This document shows, piece by piece, positions 441 to 12,403 of a stretch of 12,704 bases of DNA. The notes under the pieces are model-generated. The model ran no database searches. It worked only from the letters and a program-made list of their open reading frames with translations, and was not told the DNA's origin. The translations under genes were made by a program, and so were the position numbers. Position 1 is the first letter of the stretch; each line of letters begins with the position of its first letter. Source of the DNA: a bacterium (GTDB taxonomy: Archaea > Nanoarchaeota > Nanoarchaeia > Woesearchaeales > UBA10216); contig JAAGZO010001089.1 in assembly GCA_024206195.1 (NCBI GenBank), positions 1 through 12,704 on the forward strand. Direction: 5' to 3'.

Positions 441-469
441 AGTATGCATTATAGTCTTTTCCAAGTCAA
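441..469 (-). promoter_or_regulatory. Cassette promoter P1 (drives ArdC-like gene)
   Basis: The -35 box TTGACT is at 464-469, followed by the shared TGGAAAAGAC. A 17-bp spacer gives a poor -10 CATACT at 441-446. TATAAT also occurs inside the spacer, seven bases upstream, but would leave only a 10-bp spacer. The leader is longer (about 40 nt) than in other copies. Confidence 0.7.
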
Positions 470-477
470 CTATGAAT

Positions 478-762
478 TTATTCCCATGCCCACTTTATAA
501 TTTTATTAATTGTTATTACACTACGTTCACATAGTATACTAACAACAACAACAGCTATCACTATTAAACCCACAACTCCAGTAGGATAAATTAAAATCTC
601 AAAACATGAATCAAAATCTATATTACCCCTTTCTACTAAACTTGTACTACCATCAAACATCAGTTGTGCAGTACAGATAATAGAAAATAAAACATATGCT
701 ATTGTTGAAAGTATTACAGAATAAACAGTAGTTTTTATAATATATTTAAATAACGTCTTCAT
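478..762 (-). CDS. Small two-TM membrane protein, unknown function
   Basis: No family is recognised for this 94-residue protein. It has two hydrophobic segments at about 10-33 and 61-79, joined by a polar loop of about 27 residues with a Cys and several acidic residues. A basic start (MKTLFKYIIK) suggests an inner-membrane hairpin with the N-terminus in the cytoplasm. The ATG overlaps the stop of the upstream gene by four bases (ATGA), and no good Shine-Dalgarno sequence is seen, so translation is probably coupled. It is the last gene of the four-gene operon from promoter 1339-1367 and ends eight bases before the -35 box of the next promoter. Confidence 0.8.
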   Translation of the reverse strand: MKTLFKYIIKTTVYSVILSTIAYVLFSIICTAQLMFDGSTSLVERGNIDFDSCFEILIYPTGVVGLIVIAVVVVSILCERSVITINKIIKWAWE

Positions 763-953
763 GATTTATTATTCCATTGAATATTATTGTTTTCTATTGC
801 CCGTTCAGCCGCTTCCAATGATTTGTAATCTTTACTGCATCCCATCCAATCATCATCTAAAGGATGACCATAGACAAACCATATCTTATTAATACAATCT
901 CTATAGATAGTATTCTTACCAACCTCTTTAACCTTTAAGCATCCTGTCGGCAT
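759..953 (-). CDS. Small hypothetical protein (64 aa)
   Basis: The family is not recognised. The protein starts MPTGCLKVKEVG, has an aromatic centre (KIWFVYGHPLDDDWMGC) and ends in a likely helix rich in Ala and Glu (SLEAAERAIENNN). The ATG at 953 is preferred because it follows the upstream stop by four bases; a TTG at 995 would give 14 more residues but lies inside the upstream gene without a ribosome binding site. The fold, short strands followed by an Ala/Glu-rich helix, loosely recalls the 50-aa protein at 4112-4264, but similarity is too weak to claim homology. It is the third gene of its operon. Confidence 0.7.
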   Translation of the reverse strand: MPTGCLKVKEVGKNTIYRDCINKIWFVYGHPLDDDWMGCSKDYKSLEAAERAIENNNIQWNNKS

Positions 954-957
954 ATCA

Positions 958-1140
958 TCACTTTCTTTTAAGTTGATCAATCTTTCCCATTTCAAGAGCT
1001 AAACAAGGCGGGCAATAGCCGTGACTATAATCATGTGAATATGAATGAGGTTCATGATTCCAATCCTCTACCCGTTCCCTGTTGCCCTGTAATACTCTTG
1101 TGCAAGCACAACACATTACTTTAATAGGTTTGTTAGACAT
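958..1140 (-). CDS. Stand-alone zinc-ribbon protein resembling sensor-kinase C-terminal module
   Basis: The 60 residues hold two Cys pairs, C10/C13 and C43/C46, 29 residues apart. Between and around them are a Trp, HEPHSYSHDYSHGYCPPC, and a short basic tail. The C-x2-C...W...H...SHGxCPxC pattern resembles the small metal-binding module found at the end or in the linker of many bacterial sensor kinases and response regulators (usually C-x2-C-K-x-I-R...SHGICPEC). Here it stands alone. The start at 1140 overlaps the upstream stop by eight bases; the longer frame from 1194 has no ribosome binding site. Zinc binding is inferred from the motif. A role in interfering with host signalling is only a guess. 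Confidence 0.72.
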   Translation of the reverse strand: MSNKPIKVMCCACTRVLQGNRERVEDWNHEPHSYSHDYSHGYCPPCLALEMGKIDQLKRK

Positions 1141-1291
1141 CTTGCTTTGTCTTGTTGAATGTGTTATCGATATATTCATCAAGAGGGTTATCATAAACCA
1201 CCTTGCCCTGTGCCCTGCGAGAGTTAACCTTATTAATAATTACATCAACCGCCCACCACTTCTGATCTGTTGTTAGTTCTACCTTTGGCAT
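1133..1291 (-). CDS. Small hypothetical protein (52 aa)
   Basis: No family is recognised. The protein begins MPKVELTTDQKWWAVDVI and continues as a polar, probably helical chain ending NTFNKTKQDV. The ATG at 1291 is chosen because AAAGGGCA lies at good spacing upstream, matching the leader of other cassettes; a TTG at 1336 lies in the promoter leader and is rejected. It is the first gene of the four-gene operon (1291 down to 478) and overlaps the next start by eight bases, so the operon is likely translationally coupled. Confidence 0.72.
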   Translation of the reverse strand: MPKVELTTDQKWWAVDVIINKVNSRRAQGKVVYDNPLDEYIDNTFNKTKQDV

Positions 1292-1338
1292 ATCGTTGCC
1301 CTTTATTTTATTGGTGACTTTATTGCCACTGTTCAAAC

Positions 1339-1367
1339 ATCATATGTTATAGTCTTTTCCAAGTCAA
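1339..1367 (-). promoter_or_regulatory. Cassette promoter P2 (drives 1291-478 operon)
   Basis: TTGACT is at 1362-1367 and -10 TATGAT at 1339-1344, with a 17-bp spacer starting TGGAAAAGAC. The upstream gene's TGA stop (1364-1366) lies inside the -35 box. Confidence 0.85.
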
Positions 1368-1684: not shown

Positions 1685-1708
1685 AACAATCTCCCTTTGT
1701 TAATGATT

Positions 1709-1737
1709 AATATAGTCTAAGGTCTTTTCCAAGTCAA
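1709..1737 (-). promoter_or_regulatory. Cassette promoter P3 (drives 1364-1684)
   Basis: TTGACT is at 1732-1737, -10 TATATT at 1709-1714, with a 17-bp spacer starting TGGAAAAGAC. The upstream gene's TAG directly abuts the -35 box. Confidence 0.9.
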
Positions 1738-1902: not shown

Positions 1903-1929
1903 AATGTATTTCCCTTTATGTTAATGATT

Positions 1930-1958
1930 AATATAGTCTAAGGTCTTTTCCAAGTCAA
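1930..1958 (-). promoter_or_regulatory. Cassette promoter P4 (drives 1738-1902)
   Basis: TTGACT is at 1953-1958, -10 TATATT at 1930-1935, 17-bp spacer. The promoter and leader are nearly identical to P3. Confidence 0.9.
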
Positions 1959-2199: not shown

Positions 2200-2231
2200 G
2201 ATCATCTCTCCCTTTGTTAACGTTGATGATA

Positions 2232-2260
2232 ACTATAGTCTAGGGTCTTTTCCAAGTCAA
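2232..2260 (-). promoter_or_regulatory. Cassette promoter P5 (drives 1960-2199)
   Basis: TTGACT is at 2255-2260, -10 TATAGT at 2232-2237, 17-bp spacer. The -35 box contains the TGA stop of the upstream Tat-signal gene. Confidence 0.9.
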
Positions 2261-2718
2261 GCTCTTTCAAAGAAACCTTTACGTTTCTTGAACCCGAATG
2301 ATCTACCACCAAAGTTTGGTGTTGGCCTATCCTTAAGAGGAATTTGTGCTCTGGCATTCTGTAGTTTACGAAATGCTCTATTCTTTGCACCATCACCACG
2401 AAGACGACCAGTAACACTTTGTTCATCCGCATCTAATATATATGCTGAACATTTATGTACAACTATTTGAAAGTTTTCATCCTTTTTAATGTAAGTAACA
2501 AAGAGTTTTTTATTCTCTTCTTTAAGGTCTGAGAGTATCAATAACCCATCAATAGGATGTATCTTATCTCTCATGATGTTACGATTTACCCCTATAAGCC
2601 TATCTCTAAACCCCAGTTCATATGATGATACAACATCAGCACCTACACTACCTATCATAGTAGCACCAACCGCACCTGTACCTGTTACCTGTAAGAATGT
2701 TCTTCTAGTCATCTTCAT
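2257..2718 (-). CDS. Twin-arginine (Tat) signal-bearing protein, unknown function (153 aa)
   Basis: The N-terminus MKMTRRTFLQVTGTG carries a textbook twin-arginine motif, T-R-R-x-F-L-Q (R5, R6). A mildly hydrophobic, Gly/Ala-rich stretch runs to about residue 27 (GSVGAD), a plausible cleavage region. Established Tat biology would send the folded protein across the inner membrane. The mature part has a strand-rich middle (GLLILSDLKEENKKLFVTYIK) and a strongly basic C-terminus (GRSFGFKKRKGFFERA); no cofactor or enzyme motif is seen. ATGs at 2721 and 2718 are adjacent; 2718 has better spacing to GGGAGA. The TGA stop lies inside the next -35 box. Function and true export are unproven. Confidence 0.82.
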   Translation of the reverse strand: MKMTRRTFLQVTGTGAVGATMIGSVGADVVSSYELGFRDRLIGVNRNIMRDKIHPIDGLLILSDLKEENKKLFVTYIKKDENFQIVVHKCSAYILDADEQSVTGRLRGDGAKNRAFRKLQNARAQIPLKDRPTPNFGGRSFGFKKRKGFFERA

Positions 2719-2748
2719 CATAATCTCCCTTTATTGACGTTAATGATT

Positions 2749-2777
2749 ACTATAACTTAAGGTCTTTTCCAAGTCAA
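2749..2777 (-). promoter_or_regulatory. Cassette promoter P6 (drives Tat-signal gene)
   Basis: TTGACT is at 2772-2777, -10 TATAGT at 2749-2754, 17-bp spacer. The -35 box contains the TGA stop of the methyltransferase. Confidence 0.9.
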
Positions 2778-3499
2778 GTTCTTTCAAGTATGAGCTTTAT
2801 GTGTGTTGCGGTATCATTAAATGAACCAAACCCAAACTCTTTATTCCATTTCTTATTTAGATATGGTAATGGTTGATGGTTGATATAATCAACACTGTGG
2901 CTATATGTAAACTGTTTTACCATCTCCTCTACACTGAGGGGTAGATAGTTTTCTTGTACCTCACGCTCCCAATTCTCTGTGTACATATATTTCAATAGAA
3001 AGTGTATCATATCACGCTTGTTACTTATCCTGCCCCACACTTTCACAAAGTCTGCATACTGTTCAGGATAATTCTCTCTAACTTTAGAGATTGGTGTGAT
3101 AAACATATCATTACACACTGCATCTGTTACCGCCATATCCCTAACAACTATCTGCTGGAATGGTACAATGTTAGCCCAGAAGTTATCTATATCAGCATAA
3201 CTATATACTTCATGGATAACAGAGCTTAATATAAGTAATGTATTCTCTGGAAGATCTGACAATTCTTCAAACTTATTAACAATTTCACAATCCGTTACAG
3301 TTTCCTGTGGTGCATTATCCACACCTATATAACGTGCGTTAGGAAAGTAATGTTTGCTTGCTTTGATCAATGTACCGTCAGCACATCCAAAGTCTACGAT
3401 ACAATCAGGTGTTTTAACCTTGTCTACCCAGAATAGTTTATCGTACATGCTACGAGCCATTCCATCATTATATACTGCATAATTCTGTACTGCTGTCAT
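2774..3499 (-). CDS. Class I SAM-dependent methyltransferase (241 aa)
   Basis: The Rossmann-type SAM-binding core is clear. Motif I is IVDFGCADGTL at 34-44, the acidic residue ending strand 2 is in YIGVDNA at 57-63, and a strand-4 region has LSSVIHEVYSYAD at 91-103. VVRDM follows at 118-122. The HEVYSY and RDM motifs recall a group of bacterial and phage class I methyltransferases of undefined substrate; there is no DPPY or similar DNA-methylase motif, so a DNA N6/N4-adenine or cytosine enzyme is unlikely. The C-terminal third (about 150-241) is probably a lid or substrate domain. It is the longest gene on the left half and has its own promoter. The start at 3499 has AAAGGGAGA at normal spacing. 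Confidence 0.88.
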   Translation of the reverse strand: MTAVQNYAVYNDGMARSMYDKLFWVDKVKTPDCIVDFGCADGTLIKASKHYFPNARYIGVDNAPQETVTDCEIVNKFEELSDLPENTLLILSSVIHEVYSYADIDNFWANIVPFQQIVVRDMAVTDAVCNDMFITPISKVRENYPEQYADFVKVWGRISNKRDMIHFLLKYMYTENWEREVQENYLPLSVEEMVKQFTYSHSVDYINHQPLPYLNKKWNKEFGFGSFNDTATHIKLILERT

Positions 3500-3522
3500 C
3501 TTATCTCCCTTTGTTAATTAAT

Positions 3523-3551
3523 AATATAGCTTAAGGTCTTTTCCAAGTCAA
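3523..3551 (-). promoter_or_regulatory. Cassette promoter P7 (drives methyltransferase)
   Basis: TTGACT is at 3546-3551, -10 TATATT at 3523-3528, 17-bp spacer. It lies immediately downstream of a terminator, so it isolates the methyltransferase from upstream transcription. From start codon to -35 box it matches the 6821-6875 element at 54 of 55 positions. Confidence 0.92.
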
Positions 3552-3552: not shown

Positions 3553-3600
3553 TAAAAAAGCCCACCATCATAACGTTCGAATCGTTTATAATAGTGGGTT
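3553..3600 (-). terminator. Rho-independent terminator
   Basis: On the minus strand a long stem forms between CCCACTATTATAAACG and CGTTATGATGGTGGG, with one bulged A, G-U pairs and a seven-base loop, followed by C and a run of six T (complement of 3554-3559). It ends the 4264-3643 operon. Confidence 0.88.
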
Positions 3601-3642: not shown

Positions 3643-3819
3643 TTACTCTGGTTCTATTCTACTTCTAACTTTACAATGTGAGCAAGTAAGTGTTACACCT
3701 TCATTCTTTATTCTTTCAATTACCGAAGCAAATAATAACCCTCCCCAAAATCCTGTTTCAATTTGTATTTCTTTACGACAGTTTGGGCATTGTATTCCGG
3801 TGTTCAATCCTAATTTCAT
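3643..3819 (-). CDS. Zinc-ribbon small protein (58 aa)
   Basis: Two CxxC knuckles, C11/C14 (CPNC) and C46/C49 (CSHC), flank a hydrophobic, possibly helical middle (GFWGGLLFASVIERIK), giving a zinc-ribbon-like protein with an unusually long, apolar insert. The ATG at 3819 overlaps the upstream stop as TAATG, and AGGA lies just upstream, so translation is coupled. It is the last gene of a three-gene operon and is followed by the terminator at 3553-3600. No family can be named; metal binding is inferred from the Cys spacing. Confidence 0.78.
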   Translation of the reverse strand: MKLGLNTGIQCPNCRKEIQIETGFWGGLLFASVIERIKNEGVTLTCSHCKVRSRIEPE

Positions 3820-4115
3820 TATCCTACAACCTCATTATCATTATAGTTTCGTATCGATTTCTTCATTGCCCTGTAGTACTTTGATACGTTGTCAGTTCGT
3901 ATAACCTCTACTACATCAGCGGTAAACTTTTGACCTTCATGAGATCGCAATCCTCTAGGGAACTGTAAATAAGTGTCGGTGTTCTCACAATATGCTTTGT
4001 ACTTACCACCAACCCGAAGTATCACAATTTCAGCATCTTTAATCACATTCTTTTCATCGAACAAAGCACATTCAAATAGCTTGGCTTCGTAGTCATCTGT
4101 CCGTTCGAACTTCAT
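3819..4115 (-). CDS. Hypothetical protein, 98 aa, beta-rich
   Basis: The family is not recognised. Predicted strands (AEIVILRVGGKYKAYCEN, DTYLQFP, KFTADVVEVIRT) alternate with charged segments, and the C-terminus is a basic helix (SKYYRAMKKSIRNYNDN). The pattern would fit a small barrel or nucleic-acid-binding fold, but this is only inference. Its ATG overlaps the upstream stop (ATGA) and its TAA overlaps the downstream start (TAATG), so it is the tightly coupled middle gene of the 4264-3643 operon. Confidence 0.8.
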   Translation of the reverse strand: MKFERTDDYEAKLFECALFDEKNVIKDAEIVILRVGGKYKAYCENTDTYLQFPRGLRSHEGQKFTADVVEVIRTDNVSKYYRAMKKSIRNYNDNEVVG

Positions 4116-4264
4116 GATTTTACAAATGTCTGGTACTTGTCACGAAGTTTCTGAGCTTCCTGCTCTGCCAGTTCCTTAGAGTTGTATGAAACACCCTCTT
4201 GGATGTAGTTAACAAGTACATTGTATTTCCCGTTGCTTGCTTCTGATACTGTGACGTTTGGCAT
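4112..4264 (-). CDS. Small hypothetical protein (50 aa)
   Basis: The protein MPNVTVSEASNGKYNVLVNY continues with a turn and a charged helix (SKELAEQEAQKLRDKYQTF), giving two or three short strands then one helix. Of two in-frame ATGs (4270, 4264), the second is preferred because AAAGGGA lies eight bases before it. The stop overlaps the next start (ATGA). It is the first gene of the operon that ends at the terminator at 3553-3600. The fold pattern is like the small protein at 759-953, but no homology is claimed. Confidence 0.72.
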   Translation of the reverse strand: MPNVTVSEASNGKYNVLVNYIQEGVSYNSKELAEQEAQKLRDKYQTFVKS

Positions 4265-4309
4265 ATTCATGTTCCCTTTGGTTTGTTGTTATTGTCTCAC
4301 TGTTCCAAT

Positions 4310-4338
4310 ACTTTATACTAAGGTCTTTTCCAAGTCAA
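4310..4338 (-). promoter_or_regulatory. Cassette promoter P8 (drives 4264-3643 operon), weak -10
   Basis: TTGACT is at 4333-4338 with TGGAAAAGAC. At 17-bp spacing the -10 is TAAAGT; TATAAA is also present at 15-bp spacing. This is the least typical -10 region apart from P1. Confidence 0.78.
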
Positions 4339-4339: not shown

Positions 4340-4606
4340 TTAAAAATCCTCTAGTGCTTCAAGAAACAGTTCGCCTTCAAGGTCTTCAAGTGTTGCATAC
4401 TCATCTGTCTTGAATCCCCTATACATATTCAGCTTAAGGAAACTCAATGGCATATCTGGTGTCGCACCCATCTTTTCAAAGTTAGTTTTGTTACCAACAA
4501 CTCTACCTTGTCGATACGTTGCCATTTCACCTGTACCCCTGACAAATTCAAATATAAAGTACTTGCCATTACTATCTACAAATTTTATGTATTTTACTAG
4601 GTTCAT
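4340..4606 (-). CDS. Hypothetical protein, 88 aa
   Basis: No family is recognised. The N-terminal part is strand-rich and basic (MNLVKYIKFVDSNGKYFIFE, then EMATYRQGRVVGNK), and the C-terminus is strongly acidic (DEYATLEDLEGELFLEALEDF), giving marked charge separation. The start at 4606 has AAAGGAAA five bases upstream and is preferred to an upstream start at 4630 inside the previous gene. The gap to the previous gene is eight bases, so it is third in the 4925-4340 operon. The TAA stop is one base from the next promoter. Confidence 0.8.
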   Translation of the reverse strand: MNLVKYIKFVDSNGKYFIFEFVRGTGEMATYRQGRVVGNKTNFEKMGATPDMPLSFLKLNMYRGFKTDEYATLEDLEGELFLEALEDF

Positions 4607-4614: not shown

Positions 4615-4827
4615 TTATTTTGATGCCCAATCATATAACTTAACAATTATATCACCTATTACTACAAACAAGGCCATTATACAACCAGCAAGAATAAATG
4701 GCATTATACCACTATCGTTAATTAATTCATGGCCTGAATATATTAGCACACCTATTACAGCTACCACCGTTAATATGGCAATAATTCGAAATCCCCATCG
4801 TATAACAAACTTTAATATATTCATCAT
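4615..4827 (-). CDS. Small two-TM membrane protein (70 aa)
   Basis: Two long hydrophobic segments at about 12-31 and 40-62 are separated by a short polar loop (SGHELINDSG). Basic residues at the N-terminus and KLYDWASK at the end suggest both ends face the cytoplasm. Adjacent ATGs at 4827 and 4824 overlap the stop of the upstream microprotein (ATGATG), indicating coupled translation. The longer frame from 4890 lies inside the upstream gene and is rejected. The family is unknown; size and topology would fit holin-like, superinfection-exclusion or other envelope-modifying phage proteins, which sequence alone cannot separate. Confidence 0.78.
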   Translation of the reverse strand: MMNILKFVIRWGFRIIAILTVVAVIGVLIYSGHELINDSGIMPFILAGCIMALFVVIGDIIVKLYDWASK

Positions 4828-4925
4828 GATCTTAACCATCCTACTATAAAAAATATAGTACCAGCTATCGGGTGTCCGGTACAGAAACAAACTACACTAC
4901 ATACAAAAAGCTGTCCAGCCGTCAT
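4824..4925 (-). CDS. Cys-rich micro-membrane peptide (33 aa), CFCTGHP family
   Basis: The 33-residue product has a Cys-rich core, CSVVCFCTGHP at about 9-19, then a hydrophobic run (IAGTIFFIVGW) and a basic end (LRS). The ATG at 4925 has AAAGGGAG at good spacing and is the first gene after promoter 4949-4977, so it is very likely translated. Fourteen of 20 positions in the core match the product at 5504-5620, showing selection on the peptide. It probably sits in the membrane. The four clustered Cys/His residues could bind metal or form disulfides. No known family comes to mind. Confidence 0.75.
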   Translation of the reverse strand: MTAGQLFVCSVVCFCTGHPIAGTIFFIVGWLRS

Positions 4926-4948
4926 TGTTACTCCCTTTGTTAGTTAAT

Positions 4949-4977
4949 ACTATATGCCATAGTCTTTTCCATGTCAA
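4949..4977 (-). promoter_or_regulatory. Cassette promoter P9 (drives 4925-4340 operon)
   Basis: It has consensus -35 TTGACA (4972-4977), -10 TATAGT (4949-4954) and a 17-bp spacer. One of three intact copies with TTGACA. The upstream gene's TAG abuts it. Confidence 0.92.
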
Positions 4978-5451
4978 CTAGATTTCTTCTAGTACTGCAT
5001 CATCCCAACCATCAATTACCCATATAATTAAAGAATGTGATAGTGATTTAACTATCCAAAGCAGTGATATTCCTATATGTCCGGTGAATATAAGCCCCAC
5101 GATAATAACAATAAAAAATAGATTATCAATACTGGCTTGTTCTTTCTGGTATTCTATATAATCAGGAAACTTCTTTGCAACAGTCATAAGCGTAGCTTTT
5201 GATACATACTGTTGGAGATATGCATTCCTATCTGACTCAGAGGACTTCTCAAGATATTCATCACTTTTTACTGCATTTATTATATTATTAATAATACCGA
5301 GAATGCTTATTATACCAATAACAAACCCTACCCATGATATAGTAACAAACAATCTCCAGAATCCAACATAATATAATGATAGTGGAACTGTTGCCAACAT
5401 GGCTGTCCATGTTAATAGTGAACGTGCATATTTTTTCTTATGTTTAATCAT
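4978..5451 (-). CDS. Multi-pass membrane protein (157 aa)
   Basis: Hydrophobic segments lie at about 12-29, 33-58 and 110-134, with a further partly apolar stretch at 138-147. A charged, probably helical cytoplasmic loop (about 62-108) separates the second and third. The N-terminus is very basic (MIKHKKKYAR) and the C-terminus acidic (DGWDDAVLEEI), which fits the positive-inside rule for a cytoplasmic N-terminus. The third segment contains FTGH followed by small and hydrophobic residues, recalling the CTGHP core of the two flanking microproteins at 4824-4925 and 5504-5620; this may be distant kinship. Unknown function. The start at 5451 has AAAGGGAGA. Confidence 0.82.
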   Translation of the reverse strand: MIKHKKKYARSLLTWTAMLATVPLSLYYVGFWRLFVTISWVGFVIGIISILGIINNIINAVKSDEYLEKSSESDRNAYLQQYVSKATLMTVAKKFPDYIEYQKEQASIDNLFFIVIIVGLIFTGHIGISLLWIVKSLSHSLIIWVIDGWDDAVLEEI

Positions 5452-5474
5452 CTTGTCTCCCTTTGTTAGTTAAT

Positions 5475-5503
5475 ACTATATGTCACAGTCTTTTCCATGT
5501 CAA
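5475..5503 (-). promoter_or_regulatory. Cassette promoter P10 (drives 4978-5451)
   Basis: TTGACA is at 5498-5503, -10 TATAGT at 5475-5480, 17-bp spacer. It differs from P9 at two positions in the promoter. Confidence 0.92.
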
Positions 5504-5620
5504 CTAAATAGCATAGATTAAAAAGATAGTTCCCCATACTGGATGCCCAGTGCAAAAGCATATACAAGAGCATAGTGCTACAATATACTTGCTTGGTATC
5601 TTATCAAATACGAGTTGCAA
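5504..5620 (-). CDS. Cys-rich micro-membrane peptide, second copy of CFCTGHP family; start uncertain
   Basis: The frame ends CSCICFCTGHP, then VWGTIFLIYAI and a TAG directly abutting the next promoter. It is a clear paralogue of the 33-residue product at 4824-4925: the Cys pattern, CFCTGHP and GTIF are shared. No ATG exists in frame. TTG at 5620 gives 38 residues and is used here; another TTG further upstream (TTG AAG, with GAAGGGAAGAG before it) is possible. Both lie inside the upstream gene, so translation would be coupled. If neither start works, this is a decaying copy. Preserved coding similarity argues that it was functional until recently. Confidence 0.6.
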   Translation of the reverse strand: MQLVFDKIPSKYIVALCSCICFCTGHPVWGTIFLIYAI

Positions 5621-6598: not shown

Positions 6599-6621
6599 AG
6601 TCTCTCCCTTTGTTGTTAATA

Positions 6622-6650
6622 ACTATAGCTTAAGGTCTTTTCCAAGTCAA
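6622..6650 (-). promoter_or_regulatory. Cassette promoter P11 (drives 6598-5504 operon)
   Basis: TTGACT is at 6645-6650, -10 TATAGT at 6622-6627, 17-bp spacer. The TGA stop of the upstream gene lies inside the -35 box. Confidence 0.92.
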
Positions 6651-6823
6651 GATTTTCTCTCAATCTCCAAAAGTTTAAATAAGAGTCTTGCCTGTTTGGT
6701 TCTATCAGTTTCATCCATAACTTCTTTAATAAGTTTCCACTTATACTGTATCGAGATATGTTTACAACATGGACAGGTATTTCCACTTATCCAACGATAC
6801 CCACATTTATCACATACGTTCAT
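6647..6823 (-). CDS. Zinc-ribbon small protein (58 aa)
   Basis: The N-terminus MNVCDKCGYRWISGNTCPCC holds C4/C7 and C17/C20, nine residues apart, a compact zinc ribbon. The rest is a basic amphipathic helix (QYKWKLIKEVMDETDRTK, then QARLLFKLLEIERKS), which may bind nucleic acid or a partner. The start at 6823 has AAAGGGAGA, and the TGA stop lies inside TTGACT of promoter 6622-6650. The leader is almost identical to that of the methyltransferase. No family can be named beyond zinc ribbon. Confidence 0.82.
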   Translation of the reverse strand: MNVCDKCGYRWISGNTCPCCKHISIQYKWKLIKEVMDETDRTKQARLLFKLLEIERKS

Positions 6824-6846
6824 CTTATCTCCCTTTGTTAATTAAT

Positions 6847-6875
6847 AATATAGCTTAAGGTCTTTTCCATGTCAA
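6847..6875 (-). promoter_or_regulatory. Cassette promoter P12 (drives 6647-6823)
   Basis: TTGACA is at 6870-6875, -10 TATATT at 6847-6852, 17-bp spacer. The upstream gene's TAG abuts the -35 box. Confidence 0.92.
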
Positions 6876-7091: not shown

Positions 7092-7110
7092 ATGATATTT
7101 TCCATGTCAA
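7092..7110 (-). repeat. Collapsed copy of the cassette promoter element
   Basis: TTGACA (7105-7110) and TGGAAAA remain, but the rest of the spacer, the -10 and the leader are gone; the next ATG (7091) starts 17 bases downstream of the -35-like box. No acceptable -10 is visible at 16-18 bp. The upstream TGA stop still lies in the -35-like box. It is probably a deletion relic that fused two cassettes into one operon. Confidence 0.7.
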
Positions 7111-7313: not shown

Positions 7314-7325
7314 GATAAAAGGAGT

Positions 7326-7368
7326 GGATGGGGGACGTGAAGGGAGACTACACGTTACTCCCCCATCC
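7326..7368 (-). promoter_or_regulatory. Stable hairpin with loop complementary to the phage Shine-Dalgarno; possible attenuator or weak terminator
   Basis: A nine-bp GC-rich outer stem (7326-7334 with 7360-7368) and a five-bp inner stem (7335-7339 with 7351-7355) are separated by a four-base bulge and closed by an 11-base loop (7340-7350). On the minus strand the loop reads TAGTCTCCCTT; TCTCCCTT is an exact complement of the AAGGGAGA leader site. The stem is followed by ACTCCTTTTATC, a weak T tract. It lies between the stop at 7386 and the ATG at 7313. Confidence 0.65.
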
Positions 7369-7385
7369 AGATGAAGAAATTTATA

Positions 7386-7877
7386 TTAACTATCTAAATC
7401 AGCCTGTATTGAATCCCGTATCTTTTCCAGTTCGCTTGTGTCGTTACCGGCTTCCTTTTCCTGCTCGATTACTTTATCAAGCTCTTTAACGACTTCCTCA
7501 CCTTCCCTGCCGTATCCACACTTCGGACACCGGAACTTCTCATCAAGCTGTCCACAGTTATTAGGACAAGGACGTTCTTTAAGGAACTTCTGTCTCTCTG
7601 CCTCATCAGCATCAGACCAGTCTTTGAGTTTCTTGCTCAATTTCTTAAGAAGCTTACGTTCATCTGCAATTGCACTCTCAAAGTCCTCAACCTTATCAAC
7701 AAGGTTTGCACCATGAGTGTTATAGTCGGTGAACCCTGCTTTGTCCATAGCGTCAAAAGAATCAGTTGCATCTACAAAGTCAACAACATCTCCTTGAAAC
7801 TCAGTAGGGTCGCCATTATGATCAACCATATACTTGAATATATAAAACCTTCTCTCACCAAATGAATCTATCGCCAT
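7386..7877 (-). CDS. Zinc-ribbon protein with flanking coiled coils (163 aa)
   Basis: A zinc-ribbon-like core, CPNNCGQLDEKFRCPKCGYG (C104, C108, C117, C120), sits between two highly charged helical stretches. About 62-103 precedes it (ADERKLLKKLSKKLKDW) and about 126-163 follows (VVKELDKVIEQEKEAGND). The N-terminal 60 residues are a separate small domain (RRFYIFKYMVDHNGDPTEFQ, then FVDATDSFDAMDKAG). The first pair spacing C-x3-C is slightly unusual. The start at 7877 has AAAGGGAGGA, the strongest ribosome site in the window. It has its own promoter and may share a transcript with the tandem paralogues downstream. No family is recognised. Confidence 0.83.
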   Translation of the reverse strand: MAIDSFGERRFYIFKYMVDHNGDPTEFQGDVVDFVDATDSFDAMDKAGFTDYNTHGANLVDKVEDFESAIADERKLLKKLSKKLKDWSDADEAERQKFLKERPCPNNCGQLDEKFRCPKCGYGREGEEVVKELDKVIEQEKEAGNDTSELEKIRDSIQADLDS

Positions 7878-7904
7878 TGTCTTATCCTCCCTTTATTTGT
7901 TAAT

Positions 7905-7933
7905 ACTATACTAATTAGTCTTTTCCAAGTCAA
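7905..7933 (-). promoter_or_regulatory. Cassette promoter P13 (drives 7386-7877 and probably 7313-6876)
   Basis: TTGACT is at 7928-7933, -10 TATAGT at 7905-7910, 17-bp spacer. The upstream gene's TGA lies inside the -35 box. Confidence 0.92.
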
Positions 7934-8463
7934 GATTTAATACCATGTTTCTTATCTAAAGGTTTCCATCGTCTTTTAAATACTATAAGACATTCGTCAA
8001 TAATACTTTTAAGTTCTGTCTGTGTGAACTCTTCAAGGTCAGACTCGGTTAATCCCATCTTGAAATACTTTAAATCTTTAAGTACAACATCTTCAAGATA
8101 CTCTTGAGTAAAATGCCCATCAAAAATATTAGCCTTTATCATATCATATTCAGAATAAACTGGTCGTAGAGCATCACAAGGAAATATATAATCTCCCCAT
8201 GCATACTCAAACATACCCAAATGTCCTTCAAAATCACCCTCAGTAATGCTCTTAACTATTGATAGAGTTACTTCTCTATCGGCTGTCATATGATTAAAAA
8301 CAACTGTTGCTAATCCTTGTTCACACTCTTCATATGATAATCCATCAATCAAAGAAGTATTACAAATGACAGCACAATCTGATAAGAGTTTTGACTTGCC
8401 TACATTATCTTCTGCGATACCAATGTTTATCAGTTTTGATTTTAGTTTAGTAGAATCTTTCAT
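7930..8463 (-). CDS. Hypothetical protein, 177 aa
   Basis: No family is recognised. The protein is mostly helical by pattern, acidic in the middle (SITEGDFEGHLGMFEYAWGD) and basic at both ends (MKDSTKLKSKLINIG; VFKRRWKPLDKKHGIKS). Four Cys (C30, C34, C47, C96) are not in a zinc-like arrangement. There is no signal peptide or membrane segment, so a cytoplasmic location is expected. The start at 8463 has AAAGGGAGA. The stop is the TGA in TTGACT of the next promoter, and the last two codons (AAA TCT) are the same as in two other cassettes, giving the shared KS ending. Confidence 0.83.
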   Translation of the reverse strand: MKDSTKLKSKLINIGIAEDNVGKSKLLSDCAVICNTSLIDGLSYEECEQGLATVVFNHMTADREVTLSIVKSITEGDFEGHLGMFEYAWGDYIFPCDALRPVYSEYDMIKANIFDGHFTQEYLEDVVLKDLKYFKMGLTESDLEEFTQTELKSIIDECLIVFKRRWKPLDKKHGIKS

Positions 8464-8486
8464 CTTATCTCCCTTTGTTACTGATA

Positions 8487-8515
8487 ACTATAATCTAAGG
8501 TCTTTTCCAAGTCAA
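8487..8515 (-). promoter_or_regulatory. Cassette promoter P14 (drives 7930-8463)
   Basis: TTGACT is at 8510-8515, -10 TATAGT at 8487-8492, 17-bp spacer. The leader (TATCAGTAACAAAGG) is the same as for the three zinc-finger paralogues on the right. Confidence 0.92.
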
Positions 8516-8703
8516 GATTTAAAACTTTCTCTTCCCTTTTCCGTCCGCATCTTTAGTATTACGTAAGGCAGGAAGCACATTTTTATTGCATCACATACAC
8601 ATCTTGGTGTTCTTGAGTTATTAATATCATGCATAACAGCAGTTATGTATACCGAACCTGCCGTCAGAAATAATATAAATAATATAAATAAAGTTGTCGT
8701 CAT
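8512..8703 (-). CDS. Small membrane-anchored protein (63 aa)
   Basis: A single hydrophobic segment at about 4-24 (TLFILFILFLTAGSVYITAV) follows a short start (MTT), so the protein is an N-terminally anchored or secreted peptide. The tail has three Cys (C35, C37, C43) and then a basic stretch (KMRTEKGRESFKS). No lipobox is visible. No family is recognised. The start at 8703 has AAAGGGAGA at somewhat long spacing. The final AAA TCT TGA runs into the next promoter, as in neighbouring cassettes. Confidence 0.8.
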   Translation of the reverse strand: MTTTLFILFILFLTAGSVYITAVMHDINNSRTPRCVCDAIKMCFLPYVILKMRTEKGRESFKS

Positions 8704-8729
8704 TTTGTTTTCTCCCTTTGTTGTTGATA

Positions 8730-8758
8730 ACTATAATCTAAGGTCTTTTCCAAGTCAA
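8730..8758 (-). promoter_or_regulatory. Cassette promoter P15 (drives 8512-8703)
   Basis: TTGACT is at 8753-8758, -10 TATAGT at 8730-8735, 17-bp spacer. The TGA of the upstream gene lies inside the -35 box. Confidence 0.92.
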
Positions 8759-9126
8759 GTGATTACTCTATTATGTTTAGCACAAGTGTAACACCATTGT
8801 TCAATGCACTGTCCGAGTTCATGGTAGCATTCTGGACATATTTCTTTAGGTTCTTTGGGTTTGTTAGGTTCTTTAGGTTCTTTGGGTTTGTTAGGTTCTT
8901 TGGGTTCTTTAGGTTCGTTACAAGTACAGTTACCACCGCAACCCTTGGTCATATCAACGATACCTCTCATTGATTCGTTCTCAGCAACAAGTATCTGTAT
9001 CTGTATAGGTTTAGTCTCATCAGACTCATTCCTACCAACCATAGCTTCGGCATCTTGTTTAAGGAAATCCATTATCCTCTGGAGTTCCACATCTTTTCCT
9101 GTATGTCCTGTTACAAGTATCTTCAT
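8755..9126 (-). CDS. Cys-rich protein with Lys/Glu/Pro repeat linker (123 aa)
   Basis: There are three parts. The N-terminal 60 residues look like a small alpha/beta domain (MKILVTGHTGKDVELQRIMD, later IQIQILVAEN). A Cys cluster (C63, C67, C69) then leads into a repetitive linker at about 70-95 made of PKEPKEPNK units. A C-terminal Cys-rich finger follows, CPECYHELGQC and WCYTC (C97, C100, C107, C112, C115), a likely zinc-binding element. The linker is encoded by a 27-bp tandem repeat. No family is recognised. The start at 9126 has AAGGGAGA. The linker length is likely to vary between relatives through slippage. Confidence 0.82.
   Translation of the reverse strand: MKILVTGHTGKDVELQRIMDFLKQDAEAMVGRNESDETKPIQIQILVAENESMRGIVDMTKGCGGNCTCNEPKEPKEPNKPKEPKEPNKPKEPKEICPECYHELGQCIEQWCYTCAKHNRVIT
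8842..8919 (-). repeat. 27-bp coding minisatellite
   Basis: Two exact 27-bp copies (8842-8868, 8869-8895) are followed by a diverged partial copy (8896-8919). Each copy is built from 9-bp subunits, so the array has both 9- and 27-bp periods. It encodes the PKEPKEPNK linker. Confidence 0.93.
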
Positions 9127-9149
9127 CGTTTCTCCCTTATATTGTTAAT

Positions 9150-9178
9150 ACTATAGACCAAGGTCTTTTCCAAGTCAA
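9150..9178 (-). promoter_or_regulatory. Cassette promoter P16 (drives 8755-9126)
   Basis: TTGACT is at 9173-9178, -10 TATAGT at 9150-9155, 17-bp spacer. The stop of the 23-residue ORF lies inside the -35 box. Confidence 0.92.
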
Positions 9179-9246
9179 GAGTTATTAGAGTTCTTGCCTA
9201 TTACGACAGAACCCAGTGATCTACAAATTGTGATAAATGTACTCAT
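9175..9246 (-). CDS. Possible 23-aa microprotein
   Basis: The frame reads MSTFITICRSLGSVVIGKNSNNS. Its ATG overlaps the stop of the basic microprotein gene (ATGA) and its TGA is the one inside TTGACT of promoter 9150-9178, the same boundary rule as for larger genes. These two junctions are the main support; the peptide is too short to classify. It could be a genuine peptide or the tail of a decayed cassette gene. Confidence 0.5.
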   Translation of the reverse strand: MSTFITICRSLGSVVIGKNSNNS

Positions 9247-9350
9247 TTTCTTCTGGCCTTCTGCTTTGCCTTACGCCTTGCAAGTTTCTTTGCATTAACT
9301 TTTGCAATCTGTGCGTTCTGTTCGTCACTGAATCTATCTTTTGATGCCAT
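9243..9350 (-). CDS. Very basic microprotein (35 aa)
   Basis: The product MASKDRFSDEQNAQIAKVNA ends in a run of Lys and Arg (KKLARRKAKQKARRK), with at least 14 basic residues in 35. The second half is a likely single basic helix suited to nucleic-acid or ribosome binding; this is inferred from composition. AAGGAGT lies at good spacing before the ATG at 9350, and promoter 9377-9405 is just upstream, so expression is likely. The stop overlaps the next ATG. No family is recognised. Confidence 0.72.
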   Translation of the reverse strand: MASKDRFSDEQNAQIAKVNAKKLARRKAKQKARRK

Positions 9351-9376
9351 TTGTACTACTCCTTATGTTGTTAATA

Positions 9377-9405
9377 ACTATATACTAAAGTCTTTTCCAA
9401 GTCAA
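9377..9405 (-). promoter_or_regulatory. Cassette promoter P17 (drives 9350-9175)
   Basis: TTGACT is at 9400-9405, -10 TATAGT at 9377-9382, 17-bp spacer. The stop of the 25-residue zinc microprotein lies inside the -35 box. Confidence 0.9.
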
Positions 9406-9479
9406 GTGGTTCTACACTCTAAACAAATAAATACCTCATGTGAGTCTAAATCTTTCCCGCACTGAATACATATTCTCAT
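9402..9479 (-). CDS. Zinc-knuckle microprotein (25 aa)
   Basis: The whole product is a minimal Cys4 ribbon: CIQC (C4, C7) and CLEC (C19, C22), 11 residues apart, with almost nothing outside it. The ATG at 9479 follows the upstream stop by four bases with GGATGA before it, and the TGA lies inside TTGACT of the next promoter, so both ends follow the rules of this region. Such an isolated zinc ribbon could act as a small protein-binding module; function is unknown. Confidence 0.7.
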   Translation of the reverse strand: MRICIQCGKDLDSHEVFICLECRTT

Positions 9480-9483: not shown

Positions 9484-9696
9484 TCATCCCCATCCTTTCC
9501 ATTGAAGGATTGCTACAATAGACAAGCCTGCAATTATACCAAACAAAGATAATACCATCATATTATCATAAAACTGTGATTTCTTATCTTTGTGTAAATT
9601 AAACAATCCAACCTCTATTGCTCTATCCATATCCTTACTTAGCCAAATGAACATAGATATTGTAGAAGCTAAAACCAGTATCCCACCCCAAATCAT
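9484..9696 (-). CDS. Small two-TM membrane protein (70 aa)
   Basis: Hydrophobic segments at about 2-20 (IWGGILVLASTISMFIWLS) and 45-64 (NMMVLSLFGIIAGLSIVAIL) flank a charged loop (KDMDRAIEVGLFNLHKDKKS). The ATG at 9696 overlaps the upstream stop as TAATG. A GTG at 9747 would extend it by 17 residues inside the upstream gene, which is less likely. The protein ends QWKGWG. Unknown family; topology suggests both ends on the same side of the inner membrane. It is the middle gene of the 10136-9402 operon. Confidence 0.78.
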   Translation of the reverse strand: MIWGGILVLASTISMFIWLSKDMDRAIEVGLFNLHKDKKSQFYDNMMVLSLFGIIAGLSIVAILQWKGWG

Positions 9697-10136
9697 TATA
9701 TAAGTTCCAAGAGGAAATCCGCTTCTGATTCGAATATCTTGGTACACTCACGATTTGGTACAACATTATCCATGAAGGTGTCGAAGTCCATCAGCTTGAG
9801 GTTATTTGATTTATGTTCCTCAAATTGTCTTACACCCTGTTCATCAGGATCAGACCAGTAACCATACAACCTGCCGTATGAATCATACTGAGCTACATTG
9901 TGTTCATCAATCTCTTGGTTTCCAGCATCATCAAGAGTTGGGATACCATCTTCGGGATTGTGCATATATTCCCATACGGTATCGGGTCGATCACCTTTAA
10001 AATAAACAATGTAATCAACAGGGTTAGGTTCTGGTATTACTTCCTCATTAGGATTAACACCCAAGATTTCTTCCTGTTCATCAGCACTCAGTATATCTCC
10101 GAACAAACCTTTTGCTTTATCTTTAATACTACTCAT
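9696..10136 (-). CDS. Acidic hypothetical protein (146 aa)
   Basis: The protein is strongly acidic throughout, apart from a short basic N-terminus (MSSIKDKAKGLFGDIL). It has aromatic and Tyr-rich patches (VDYIVYFKGDRPDTVWEYMH, YDSYGRLYGYWSDPDEQG) and ends KIFESEADFLLELI. The ending resembles the last residues of the tandem paralogues at 6876-7313 (SEALLVAI, CEALLEFI), as does the preceding TFMDNVV; this may be a shared C-terminal domain, but the evidence is short. No known family. High negative charge leaves open DNA mimicry or anti-host inhibitor roles, which the sequence does not prove. The start at 10136 has AAGGGAGA. Confidence 0.8.
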   Translation of the reverse strand: MSSIKDKAKGLFGDILSADEQEEILGVNPNEEVIPEPNPVDYIVYFKGDRPDTVWEYMHNPEDGIPTLDDAGNQEIDEHNVAQYDSYGRLYGYWSDPDEQGVRQFEEHKSNNLKLMDFDTFMDNVVPNRECTKIFESEADFLLELI

Positions 10137-10162
10137 AATCTTTTCTCCCTTACGTTGTTAAT

Positions 10163-10191
10163 ACTATAGTATAATGTCTTTTCCAAGTCAA
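10163..10191 (-). promoter_or_regulatory. Cassette promoter P18 (drives 10136-9402 operon)
   Basis: TTGACT is at 10186-10191, -10 TATAGT at 10163-10168, 17-bp spacer. The upstream gene's GAT TGA runs into the -35 box. Confidence 0.92.
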
Positions 10192-10796
10192 TCTAATTTA
10201 TGTAGGAACCTTTCAGATTCTAGTTCTTTCCTTGTTACCTTGTCCATCTTATTCAAGAGTACTTCACCTTCGTGAGCATGTTCCATTAAACAAAGTGGGC
10301 AGACATTCAGTTTCTTTTTCCAGCTACCACCAAGTGAAAAGTATGGTAGGTCTTTGAGAATAAGTCCACATATACAACAATAAGATTGAGCACTATTACC
10401 CTTTTCATAACCTTTGAATCCCATATAAGAATCTCTGGCATCCTTGAAACGTATCTTGGGTTTCTTCTTATCCTCTGGATCGATCTCAACCTCGGCTATT
10501 GTCAGGCCATTTAATAGGTCGAGTAAATTTTCATTATCTGTAATACTCTTTTTTAGATAATACCCTCCCATACTTTTAGTCCGTAACGAAGTTTTTAAAT
10601 GTGTTAGCTTGGTAGTTGTATTCTTTATAACACCAGCCAGCCCACGTTCCGCACCAGCCTTTGATTTATAGTGCTTACCCCTCATCAGATCATCTGTAGT
10701 AACGTCTTTAATTGTATTGTTCCAGCGTAATCGTATGTTAGGAAACTTTGCTATTATAAAATTCCCTTCACTTGTTTGTAATGTAAAATATTTCAT
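10188..10796 (-). CDS. Zinc-finger paralogue family member B (202 aa)
   Basis: It shares the family plan with 5604-6191. An N-terminal strand pair MKYFTLQTSEGNFI is followed by KHYKSKAGAERGL at 41-53, a variable helical middle and AEVEIDPED at 101-109. The C-terminal module has YCCICG (C140, C143), LKDLPYFSLGG and NVCPLC (C166, C169), then a charged helix and SERFLHKLD. Similarity to the other members is strongest in the last 70 residues. The molecular role is unknown; a zinc finger after a variable domain could suit target recognition in the host. The start at 10796 has AAAGGA. Confidence 0.82.
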   Translation of the reverse strand: MKYFTLQTSEGNFIIAKFPNIRLRWNNTIKDVTTDDLMRGKHYKSKAGAERGLAGVIKNTTTKLTHLKTSLRTKSMGGYYLKKSITDNENLLDLLNGLTIAEVEIDPEDKKKPKIRFKDARDSYMGFKGYEKGNSAQSYCCICGLILKDLPYFSLGGSWKKKLNVCPLCLMEHAHEGEVLLNKMDKVTRKELESERFLHKLD

Positions 10797-10816
10797 ATGT
10801 TCCTTTGTTACTGATA

Positions 10817-10845
10817 ACTATATGCCAAGGTCTTTTCCAAGTCAA
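10817..10845 (-). promoter_or_regulatory. Cassette promoter P19 (drives 10188-10796)
   Basis: TTGACT is at 10840-10845, -10 TATAGT at 10817-10822, 17-bp spacer. Three bases separate the upstream TAA from the -35 box. Confidence 0.92.
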
Positions 10846-10848
10846 GCC

Positions 10849-11640
10849 TTAATCCATTGATATCAGGAATCTATCTGTGTTATAATGTTCAAGAATATCC
10901 GGTGATATTTTCTTTGATTGTATCTGTGCTTCATGTGATAGTTTGGTCATACAGATTGCACATATTCTATGAGTTTCCTTACCACCATAGATAACTAACT
11001 GTGGTACATCTGGCACAGCACCGCCACAGGCATTACAATAACTTCCTGCTGTCTCATCAGACTTTCGCATATCCCATTTGATCGATCGCTTCTCTGAGTC
11101 CATAAATTTAAACTCAAGGTCACACTCTCGGACAATAAGTTTATCTTTTATATATTTGATCTCACTCTCTGCCCGAAGTTTAACGTTATCCCAATTTGTT
11201 TTGCCGTTCCATACATAGTCTTCTATGGCCTTTACTTGCAGTTCGTTATATGTCTGGTTTCGTGTATTTTGACGACCATTAAAGTATATACTTCTTGAAC
11301 CCCAAGCATAGTTCGGATCATCATACTGGATGCACATGTTATACTTTGTCAATATATCAACCTTTTCATCAAAAGTTAATGTTGGATAACCAGATGCTAA
11401 ACGAGCATTATCTTTTATTCCAGTAATAGCAGTTGCCAAATCTTTCTTGGCTGTCTTGTCGAGTTTATCGATTTCCGCCAAGGCATCCTTTTCTGTATCG
11501 CATGATGGTGCTAGTGCTGTCTGTTTTGTAAAACATGGTTTTGCTTTAATTTCATTTGCATAGTAACCATACCCACCACCAAAATATTTGAAGTAACCTT
11601 TGCTTTTCGCATTAACACCTATAAACCATTTACTAATCAT
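10849..11640 (-). CDS. Zinc-finger paralogue family member C, longest and most diverged (263 aa)
   Basis: The C-terminal module is clear: SYCNACGG (C202, C205), VPDVPQLVIYGG, RICAIC (C227, C230), then a helix and TDRFLISMD. The N-terminal 190 residues differ from the other members. They are Gly/Tyr-rich at the start (GYFKYFGGGYGYYANE), have a charged helical part at 48-85 (EKDALAEIDKLDKTAKKD), and a long insert with WGSRSIYFNGRQNTRNQ near 113-129. The common finger on a distinct N-terminal part suggests domain swapping or fast divergence. The start at 11640 has AAAGGAGA. Longest gene in the window; no known family. Confidence 0.82.
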   Translation of the reverse strand: MISKWFIGVNAKSKGYFKYFGGGYGYYANEIKAKPCFTKQTALAPSCDTEKDALAEIDKLDKTAKKDLATAITGIKDNARLASGYPTLTFDEKVDILTKYNMCIQYDDPNYAWGSRSIYFNGRQNTRNQTYNELQVKAIEDYVWNGKTNWDNVKLRAESEIKYIKDKLIVRECDLEFKFMDSEKRSIKWDMRKSDETAGSYCNACGGAVPDVPQLVIYGGKETHRICAICMTKLSHEAQIQSKKISPDILEHYNTDRFLISMD

Positions 11641-11662
11641 TGTATCTCCTTTATTACTGATA

Positions 11663-11691
11663 ACTATAGACTAAGGTCTTTTCCAAGTCAA
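11663..11691 (-). promoter_or_regulatory. Cassette promoter P20 (drives 10849-11640)
   Basis: TTGACT is at 11686-11691, -10 TATAGT at 11663-11668, 17-bp spacer. Confidence 0.92.
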
Positions 11692-11692
11692 C

Positions 11693-12349
11693 TTATATCC
11701 CACCAAGTATTAGCTCATTGGTTATCTTTTCTCTATGCTTAACGTCCATACGTTCGAATGTACTATTGATTTCATCTACCTTAAGCTTTAAACAACATAC
11801 ACAAACCTTCATACTGTTAGCTTCAGGAAATTCAAAATATGGTACATTCTTAAGAGTGACACCACAGGACTTACAATAGGTTCTTGCCTTACTATCTTTC
11901 CTTGCCAACATACGAACCTTCTTGTCTTGCTTGGCGTACCATGCATTCCATGTAACCTTAAGGTCTGATGGGAAGTTTGGTTCGTCTAGTTCCAGTTCAA
12001 CAACCTCTGCTTTCTGCAACCAACTGAGGATTTTAACAGCACTCTCATACTTTCCTTTGGCTTGGTTTAATGCCCAACCATTGCCATAGTAATTTCTATT
12101 ACCACCTTTTTGAAAGTTATGTTCTTTTAATTTTTCTTCGTAAACTGCTTCAAGCATGGGTACATCTGCGGTGTATGATTTGAGGTACTTCCTAACCCAT
12201 GCCTTTGCTGGTGTTGCTGATTTATAATGCTTGGCATCATCGTCACAGTCTGTAATCTTAAGACTTGCACCGGAATAATAAGATGTGCTTATTGCTTTGT
12301 AACCATCTTCAATAAATTCTTCACCGGATTTAATTGCATAACATTTCAT
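11693..12349 (-). CDS. Zinc-finger paralogue family member D (218 aa)
   Basis: This member is close to 5604-6191 at both ends. MKCYAIKSGEEFI matches MKAYAIKCHDGEYV, and KHYKSATPAKAWVRKYLKS at 40-58 matches the RHYKKAGSAKG region. VELELDEPNF is at 117-126. The finger has TYCKSCG (C159, C162), LKNVPYFEFP and VCVCC (C183, C186, with an extra C185). A polar, Asn/Gly/Tyr-rich middle (KGGNRNYYGNGW) is unique to it. The C-terminus (MDVKHREKITNELILGGI) lacks the RF seen in the others. The start at 12349 has AAAAGGAAA. Confidence 0.82.
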   Translation of the reverse strand: MKCYAIKSGEEFIEDGYKAISTSYYSGASLKITDCDDDAKHYKSATPAKAWVRKYLKSYTADVPMLEAVYEEKLKEHNFQKGGNRNYYGNGWALNQAKGKYESAVKILSWLQKAEVVELELDEPNFPSDLKVTWNAWYAKQDKKVRMLARKDSKARTYCKSCGVTLKNVPYFEFPEANSMKVCVCCLKLKVDEINSTFERMDVKHREKITNELILGGI

Positions 12350-12374
12350 AGTGTATTTCCTTTTGTTACTGATA

Positions 12375-12403
12375 ACTATAAGTCACAGTCTTTTCCAAGT
12401 CAA
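12375..12403 (-). promoter_or_regulatory. Cassette promoter P21 (drives 11693-12349)
   Basis: TTGACT is at 12398-12403, -10 TATAGT at 12375-12380, 17-bp spacer. The TGA of the upstream remnant lies inside the -35 box. It is the rightmost element seen. Confidence 0.92.

What the first reader, a model, noticed from the sequence alone, without database searches (positions are those of the whole stretch)
441..12403. Array of 21 near-identical promoter-leader elements, one per gene or small operon, all in one direction
Seen directly: 21 copies of TTGACT/TTGACA, TGGAAAAGAC, a -10 box at 17 bp and, in most, an AAAGGGAGA-type leader, each in front of one to four short genes. With only two clear terminators, transcripts should be nested, so expression rises toward the left. 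Repeated early promoters framing small accessory genes are known in some phages. Here the density and uniformity suggest an organised cassette system that gains and shuffles genes by homologous recombination at the promoter repeats.
Basis: partly seen in the sequence, partly recalled or inferred. Interest (0 to 1): 0.85.

Follow-up and report, generated by a model that had tools for sequence, protein, structure and literature searches.

The report
Twenty-one copied promoters driving small genes
A stretch of DNA from an unidentified mobile element, probably a phage, carries 21 copies of one compact start signal, one before each small gene or gene group, which looks like a shared-switch version of the early-gene regions known from phages such as T4.

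Summary
The 16-mer TTGACWTGGAAAAGAC occurs 21 times, all on the minus strand (0.46 expected at up to 3 mismatches), with a -10-like hexamer 17 bp behind the -35 box (TATAGT or TATATT in 18 of 21) and one to four short genes behind each.

(2) The element fills the gap between genes: the upstream stop codon lies inside the -35 box in 11 of 21 and within 8 nt of it in 9 more. (3) Neighbouring copies resemble each other, two distant copies match over 50 consecutive bp, and the array holds paralogues, which points to duplication and copying. (4) Three hairpins interrupt the array.

No relative carrying the array was found, so gene gain and loss between relatives could not be tested. Phage or plasmid is unsettled. 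T4 early promoters, p576 establishment genes and SIRV2 early genes work alike: a new variant of a known kind.

The parts
12361..12403 (-). element 1 (TTGACT / TATAGT), class I; gene 11693-12349 (ends of elements here and below are approximate, to the Shine-Dalgarno site or start)
11649..11691 (-). element 2, class I; gene 10849-11640
10803..10845 (-). element 3, class I; gene 10188-10796
10144..10191 (-). element 4, class I; genes 9696-10136, 9484-9747, 9402-9479
9358..9405 (-). element 5, class I; genes 9243-9350, 9175-9246
9130..9178 (-). element 6, class I; gene 8755-9126
8711..8758 (-). element 7, class I; gene 8512-8703
8468..8515 (-). element 8, class I; gene 7930-8463
7885..7933 (-). 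element 9, class I; gene 7386-7877, then a hairpin
7325..7369 (-). hairpin (-25.6 kcal/mol, z -5.0), weak U-tract; interrupts the array
7095..7110 (-). degenerate 22nd copy TTGACATGGAAAATAT, no clear -10 or leader, directly before the start of gene 6876-7091
6828..6875 (-). element 10 (TTGACA / TATATT), class I; gene 6647-6823; identical to element 15 at positions 7-56
6603..6650 (-). element 11, class I; genes 6191-6598, 5604-6191, 5504-5635
5456..5503 (-). element 12 (TTGACA), class I; gene 4978-5451
4930..4977 (-). element 13 (TTGACA), class I; genes 4824-4925, 4615-4824, 4340-4606
4271..4338 (-). element 14, class II leader (68 nt to the start); genes 4112-4270, 3819-4115, 3643-3819
3554..3598 (-). 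intrinsic terminator (-17.7 kcal/mol, z -4.7) whose U-tract runs up to the next -35 box
3504..3551 (-). element 15, class I; methyltransferase-like gene 2774-3499
2727..2777 (-). element 16, class I; gene 2257-2721
2211..2260 (-). element 17, class I; gene 1960-2205
1911..1958 (-). element 18, class I; gene 1738-1902
1689..1737 (-). element 19, class I; gene 1364-1684
1292..1367 (-). element 20, class II leader (76 nt); genes 1133-1291, 958-1140, 759-995, 478-762
394..469 (-). element 21, class II leader (76 nt); ArdC-like gene 1-393, cut by the contig end
12508..12543 (-). hairpin (-23.1 kcal/mol, z -4.4), 105 nt upstream of the first element
10188..12349 (-). three consecutive single-gene units of one paralogous CxxC...CxxC family (fourth member at 5604-6191)

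Best explanation
The window is an early (entry-phase) accessory-gene region of a mobile element, more likely a large phage than a plasmid. Each small gene or operon sits behind its own copy of a compact host-type (sigma70-like) promoter with a Shine-Dalgarno site close behind it. The invariant TGGAAAAGAC block inside the promoter spacer is the binding site of one common factor, so the 21 units form a single regulon that is switched together, for instance fired on entry and then repressed. Units have multiplied and been exchanged by duplication or gene conversion at the repeated elements. Shown: the repeats, their promoter form, the packing, the invariant block, the signs of copying. Inferred: activity, the factor, early timing, and recombination as the route.
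For: 21 exact copies in one orientation; 23 sites at up to 3 mismatches against 0.46 expected. Spacer bases 7-16 vary in none of 21 copies, whereas bases 17-23 differ in 53% of pairs and the 20 upstream bases in 69%; homogenisation of the whole element would have levelled these too. Upstream stop inside the -35 box in 11 of 21, at offsets 0 to -8 in 9 of 21, absent in 1; 16 of the 18 class I gaps are 48-57 nt, the other two hold the hairpins at 3598-3561 and 12543-12508. Copying: neighbour similarity 6 of 20000 shuffles, 35 of 20000 for class I alone; copies 6875 and 3551 match over 50 consecutive bp, up to the start codon of unrelated genes; four-member paralogue family, phmmer E down to 4.5e-18, and the 4824/5504 pair, E 3e-10. 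T4 early promoters show the same layout: of 8 pattern-found sites in T4 1-50000, 4 start within 12 nt of the upstream stop and 5 have the start codon at 54-57 nt.
Against: No regulator family was recognised among all 36 window proteins by Pfam at E up to 0.05; the regulator would have to be of unknown type or lie elsewhere. The core is not a clear palindrome (by eye). Promoter activity and timing are untested. No phage hallmark gene is in the window, and 13 of 36 window proteins tested against 50,697 phage records gave no match.
Confidence: 0.5

Rival explanations
1. Plain strong early promoters of the T4 type: host RNA polymerase reads all copies at once on entry, and the spacer block is kept for polymerase contact or by repeated copying, with no dedicated regulator.
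For: Same layout as T4 early promoters; PMC2988021 (passages) says T4 early promoters carry consensus beyond the known polymerase elements. Copying among elements is evident. No regulator family among 36 proteins.
Against: The 8 T4 sites found share no fixed ten-base block, only a TGG-like end before the -10 in most. Copying alone would also have levelled the 3' spacer and leader, which vary.
Confidence: 0.28
2. Leading (establishment) region of a conjugative plasmid or integrative element, with the block as repressor operator, as in Bacillus plasmid p576: genes fire on entry into a recipient and are then shut off.
For: Gene 1-393 is ArdC-like; tblastn finds 17 plasmid records (11 predicted conjugative) and no phage record. 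PMC8708921 (abstract and passages) describes ardC and other variable genes behind repeated repressor-controlled promoters.
Against: No relaxase, transfer or SSB family among the 36 proteins by Pfam; oriT was not searched. Eleven other window proteins have no plasmid match. p576 has four such promoters with heptamer operators next to the -35 box; here there are 21 with the block inside the spacer.
Confidence: 0.2
3. One reading: a dedicated cassette system in which genes are routinely gained and reshuffled at the promoter repeats.
For: Units fit end to end, with the stop codon in or at the element; paralogues and copied promoters; a degenerate half-element at 7110 beside a weakly paralogous gene pair. 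In cluster O mycobacteriophages two gene differences are put down to recombination between 17-bp repeats (PMC4351075, passages).
Against: No relatives to compare. Exact runs counted from the -35 box exceed 27 nt in only two pairs, plus the 50-bp run of 6875/3551; this is short for efficient homologous recombination (recalled). Neighbour similarity fits plain tandem duplication. The same cluster O paper says few, if any, repeats are involved in the rearrangements seen.
Confidence: 0.25
4. Single-stranded-DNA promoters (Frpo or ssi type, or EGeRS1-like) that work by folding.
For: ArdC-like gene next to the array; such promoters exist in plasmid leading regions (PMC11541004, passages). One element, 4977, folds better than shuffles (z -2.3 on both strands).
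Against: Over all 21 elements, 90-nt stretches fold no better than dinucleotide shuffles: mean z +0.34 and +0.33 on the two strands.
Confidence: 0.03

Closest known systems
T4 early promoters, and PeSL cassettes of T4-type phages
   Same: Strong sigma70-type promoters, half of those found set within 12 nt of the upstream stop codon, start codon mostly about 55 nt from the -35 box, in front of small accessory genes; PeSLs are credited with shuffling of genes between T4-like phages (PMC4503421, passages; the two PeSL papers themselves are not held).
   Different: T4 spacers found here share no fixed ten-base block, and no exact 16-mer of ordinary complexity occurs more than twice per 12.7 kb in T4 1-50000 against 18 times here. 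Only 1 of 21 elements here follows a stem-loop directly.
SPO1 host-takeover module (Bacillus phage)
   Same: 24 to 26 genes, largely unlike known proteins, in several operons in most of a 13.2-kb terminal redundancy, at least one noted as early (PMC6873191 and PMC10531801, passages).
   Different: In SPO1 1-16000 a strict TTGAC pattern finds three sites, 71-137 nt from the upstream gene, with no shared spacer block and in two directions; this pattern will miss weaker promoters, so it is a rough comparison.
SIRV2 early-gene regulatory sequence (archaeal virus)
   Same: One conserved regulatory sequence with promoter precedes 11 of 13 early genes, two known anti-CRISPRs among them, likely repressed by Aca8 (PMC11065993, passages).
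   Different: Archaeal TATA/BRE promoter; here a bacterial -35/-10 promoter, and no Aca-like gene recognised.
p576 establishment regulon (EGeRS2)
   Same: Repeated promoters with operators, ArdC, variable gene content (PMC8708921, abstract and passages).
   Different: Four promoters; operator next to the -35 box, not in the spacer; RHH repressor known.
Cluster K mycobacteriophage start-associated sequences
   Same: Short repeats in front of many small genes, nearly all in one orientation (PMC3203893, passages).
   Different: 13-bp sequence at the start codon with a proposed role in translation, not a -35/-10 promoter; absent from the window.

Membership tests
sigma70-type promoter | -35 and -10 hexamers 16-18 bp apart | tested here: met
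   TTGACT/A in 21 of 21; TATAGT or TATATT 17 bp on in 18 of 21; the three class II copies have TAAAGT, TATGAT, CATACT
sigma70-type promoter | transcription starts there | not testable with these tools
   needs start-site mapping
PeSL cassette (T4-type) | stem-loop terminator joined to an early promoter | tested here: not met
   of 60-nt stretches before the 21 elements, 1 (3551) folds strongly (z -4.6) with a 6-T run; the next lowest z is -2.2 (9178) without a T run
PeSL cassette (T4-type) | gene content differs between relatives at the cassettes | not testable with these tools
   no relative with the array found
p576-type establishment regulon | ArdC gene under the shared promoter | tested here: inconclusive
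   gene 1-393 is ArdC-like (23-35% identity), truncated, not matched by Pfam; it does follow element 21
p576-type establishment regulon | operator next to the -35 box and a reg (RHH) gene | tested here: not met
   little conservation upstream of the -35 box (at most 0.72 bits per position); no RHH or HTH family among 36 proteins
Frpo/ssi single-strand promoter | stable fold of the single strand around -35/-10 | tested here: not met
   mean z +0.34 over 21; one copy, 4977, at -2.3
SAS repeat (cluster K) | 13-bp GGGATAGGAGCCC at the start codon | tested here: not met
   no exact copy on either strand of the window
tailed-phage genome | terminase, portal, capsid or tail genes | tested here: inconclusive
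   none in this 12.7-kb contig; 20 of 36 proteins scanned against PHROGs gave only weak hits

The most novel reading that the evidence does not exclude
A regulated gene-cassette array without an integrase: the exchange unit is promoter plus gene, with borders set by the stop codon lying in or at the next -35 box. The 16-bp core serves at once as stop site for the gene before, operator and -35 region for the gene behind, and homology for exchange, so that units can be added, lost or reordered without breaking reading frames or regulation.
Probability: 0.25. Interest if true: 0.72.

Novelty: new variant of a known kind. Interest (0 to 1): 0.5.

Why it matters
If the spacer block is an operator, a single motif marks a whole early regulon of about 35 mostly unknown small genes. 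Conserved early promoters have been used to find anti-defence genes in archaeal viruses, and plasmid leading regions are rich in them (PMC11065993 and PMC11541004, passages), so the motif would be a direct handle for finding candidates. The exact end-to-end packing also makes the question of how such elements trade accessory genes testable by comparing relatives unit by unit.
Full report
What is there. The window is probably a whole metagenomic contig: the protein database lists its own methyltransferase once, with 12,704 bases as longest contig. GC is 36%. My table has 36 genes, all on the minus strand, median 84 aa, 88% coding; several very short ORFs (9175-9246, 9402-9479) were accepted partly because they fit the packing. 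The 16-mer TTGACWTGGAAAAGAC occurs 21 times, all on the minus strand; at up to 3 mismatches there are 23 sites against 0.46 expected. The hexamer 17 bp behind the -35 box is TATAGT or TATATT in 18 of 21 and deviates in three.

Conservation. Spacer positions 7-16 (TGGAAAAGAC) are the same in 21 of 21 copies. Positions 17-23 differ in 53% of pairs, the 20 bases upstream in 69%. Position 19 (T, 95%) and a T and an A in the leader are also kept. A sigma70 promoter needs the two hexamers and their spacing, not ten fixed spacer bases (established knowledge), so selection by a further binding partner is the simplest reading. By eye the core holds a direct repeat, WWGAC twice in 11-bp register (TTGAC and AAGAC); this is a lead only. 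Against it: none of the 36 proteins matches a DNA-binding regulator family in Pfam at E up to 0.05.

Packing. The upstream stop codon is the TGA inside TTGAC in 11 of 21 copies (one of these ORFs, before 12403, has no clear start codon), ends at offset 0, -1, -3 or -8 in 9, and is absent in one (3551, where a terminator stands). For ORFs of at least 25 codons with a start codon, 18 of 21 elements have a stop at -8 to +4, against a mean of 1.4 when the set is shifted round the window; one of 5000 shifts reached 18, probably the null shift itself. Of 18 gaps with a class I element, 16 are 48-57 nt; the other two are the 143-nt gap with the terminator and the 204-nt gap before the first unit. The three class II gaps are 69, 72 and 84 nt. 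Gaps without an element are overlaps or at most 15 nt, except the hairpin gap of 72 nt.

Two leader classes. Eighteen copies have the start codon 49-56 nt from the -35 box. Copies 4338, 1367 and 469 have 68-76 nt, the three deviant -10 boxes, and by eye a common AACAG...CAAT-like stretch. They head a three-gene unit, the four-gene unit and the ArdC-like gene.

Terminators. Three hairpins in gaps between genes fold far better than shuffles: 12543-12508 (z -4.4), 7369-7325 (z -5.0), 3598-3561 (z -4.7). I picked them by eye; a later scan of the minus strand in 60-nt windows found the same three, and others inside or at the end of genes starting near 8219, 7499 and 554. Only 3598-3561 ends in a run of U, and that run reaches the next -35 box. 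The simple terminator scan listed only the first on this strand. Nested transcription is thus possible within blocks of 9, 5 and 7 elements, or 14 and 7 if only the U-tract hairpin stops transcription. Gene 7107-7313 follows a hairpin with no element and no evident Shine-Dalgarno site (by eye).

Signs of copying. Leaders of neighbouring elements are more alike than in shuffled order (6 of 20000; class I only 35 of 20000). Copies 6875 and 3551, 3.3 kb apart and in front of unrelated genes, match at positions 7-56 without a break. Other long matches: 1958/1737 (40 nt) and 8758/8515 (35 nt). All three TTGACA copies, and the degenerate one, lie between 7110 and 4977. Paralogues: 5604-6191, 10188-10796, 10849-11640 and 11693-12349 (three of them consecutive single-gene units); 4824-4925 with 5504-5635; weakly 6876-7091 with 7107-7313 (E 0.04-0.07).

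Comparison. In 50 other loci held at the time, no 16-mer of ordinary complexity occurs more than 4 times per 12.7 kb; SPO1 1-16000 and T4 1-50000 give 2, the window 18. Most of these loci are chance pattern hits, not a designed sample. Eight T4 sites found by pattern share the layout in part (4 of 8 within 12 nt of the stop; the rest 43-117 nt) but not a fixed spacer block. SPO1 shows looser spacing by a strict pattern.

What element. Gene 1-393 is ArdC-like: 17 plasmid records, 23-35% identity, and no phage record. The paralogue family has relatives only in metagenomes among proteins found. The methyltransferase belongs to a broad family with a 32% relative on a viral contig. I favour phage on gene style and T4-like layout, at about 70%, and cannot exclude a plasmid.

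Mechanism. Shown: form, repetition, packing, invariant block, copying. Inferred: promoter activity, common regulator, early timing, and recombination as the route. Literature parallels were seen as passages, and for PMC8708921 also the abstract and outline. The two PeSL papers were not held.

Noticed in passing
window 1-393 (-): ArdC-like N-terminal protein at the contig end, an anti-restriction type known from plasmids; not matched by Pfam.
   Followed up: partly
window 5604-6191, 10188-10796, 10849-11640, 11693-12349 (-): Family of CxxC...CxxC proteins whose relatives found are all metagenomic; the zinc end weakly resembles PARP-type and small phage zinc folds.
   Followed up: partly
window 7107-7313 and 7095-7110 (-): Gene behind a hairpin with no promoter element, followed by a half-element lacking a clear -10 and leader just before the next gene: looks like a rearrangement scar.
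   Followed up: no
window 12400-12559 (-): Open frame of 52 codons ending in the first element, with no usual start codon and overlapping a hairpin; possibly a gene remnant.
   Followed up: no
window about 8219-8160 (-): Strong predicted RNA structure (-23.2 kcal/mol, z -6.0) inside gene 7930-8463.
   Followed up: no
window 6191-6598 (-): Short stretch resembling the C-terminal domain of ribosomal protein L7/L12 (Pfam E 8e-5, below the curated cut-off).
   Followed up: no
window 9402-9479 (-): 25-aa protein with weak zinc-finger and NinF-like matches (Pfam E about 0.01, below cut-offs).
   Followed up: no
window 2257-2721 (-): Small protein with a weak twin-arginine signal at its start (E 0.02).
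   Followed up: no
window 8755-9126 (-): Protein with a repeated EPK/EPN linker and cysteine pairs.
   Followed up: no
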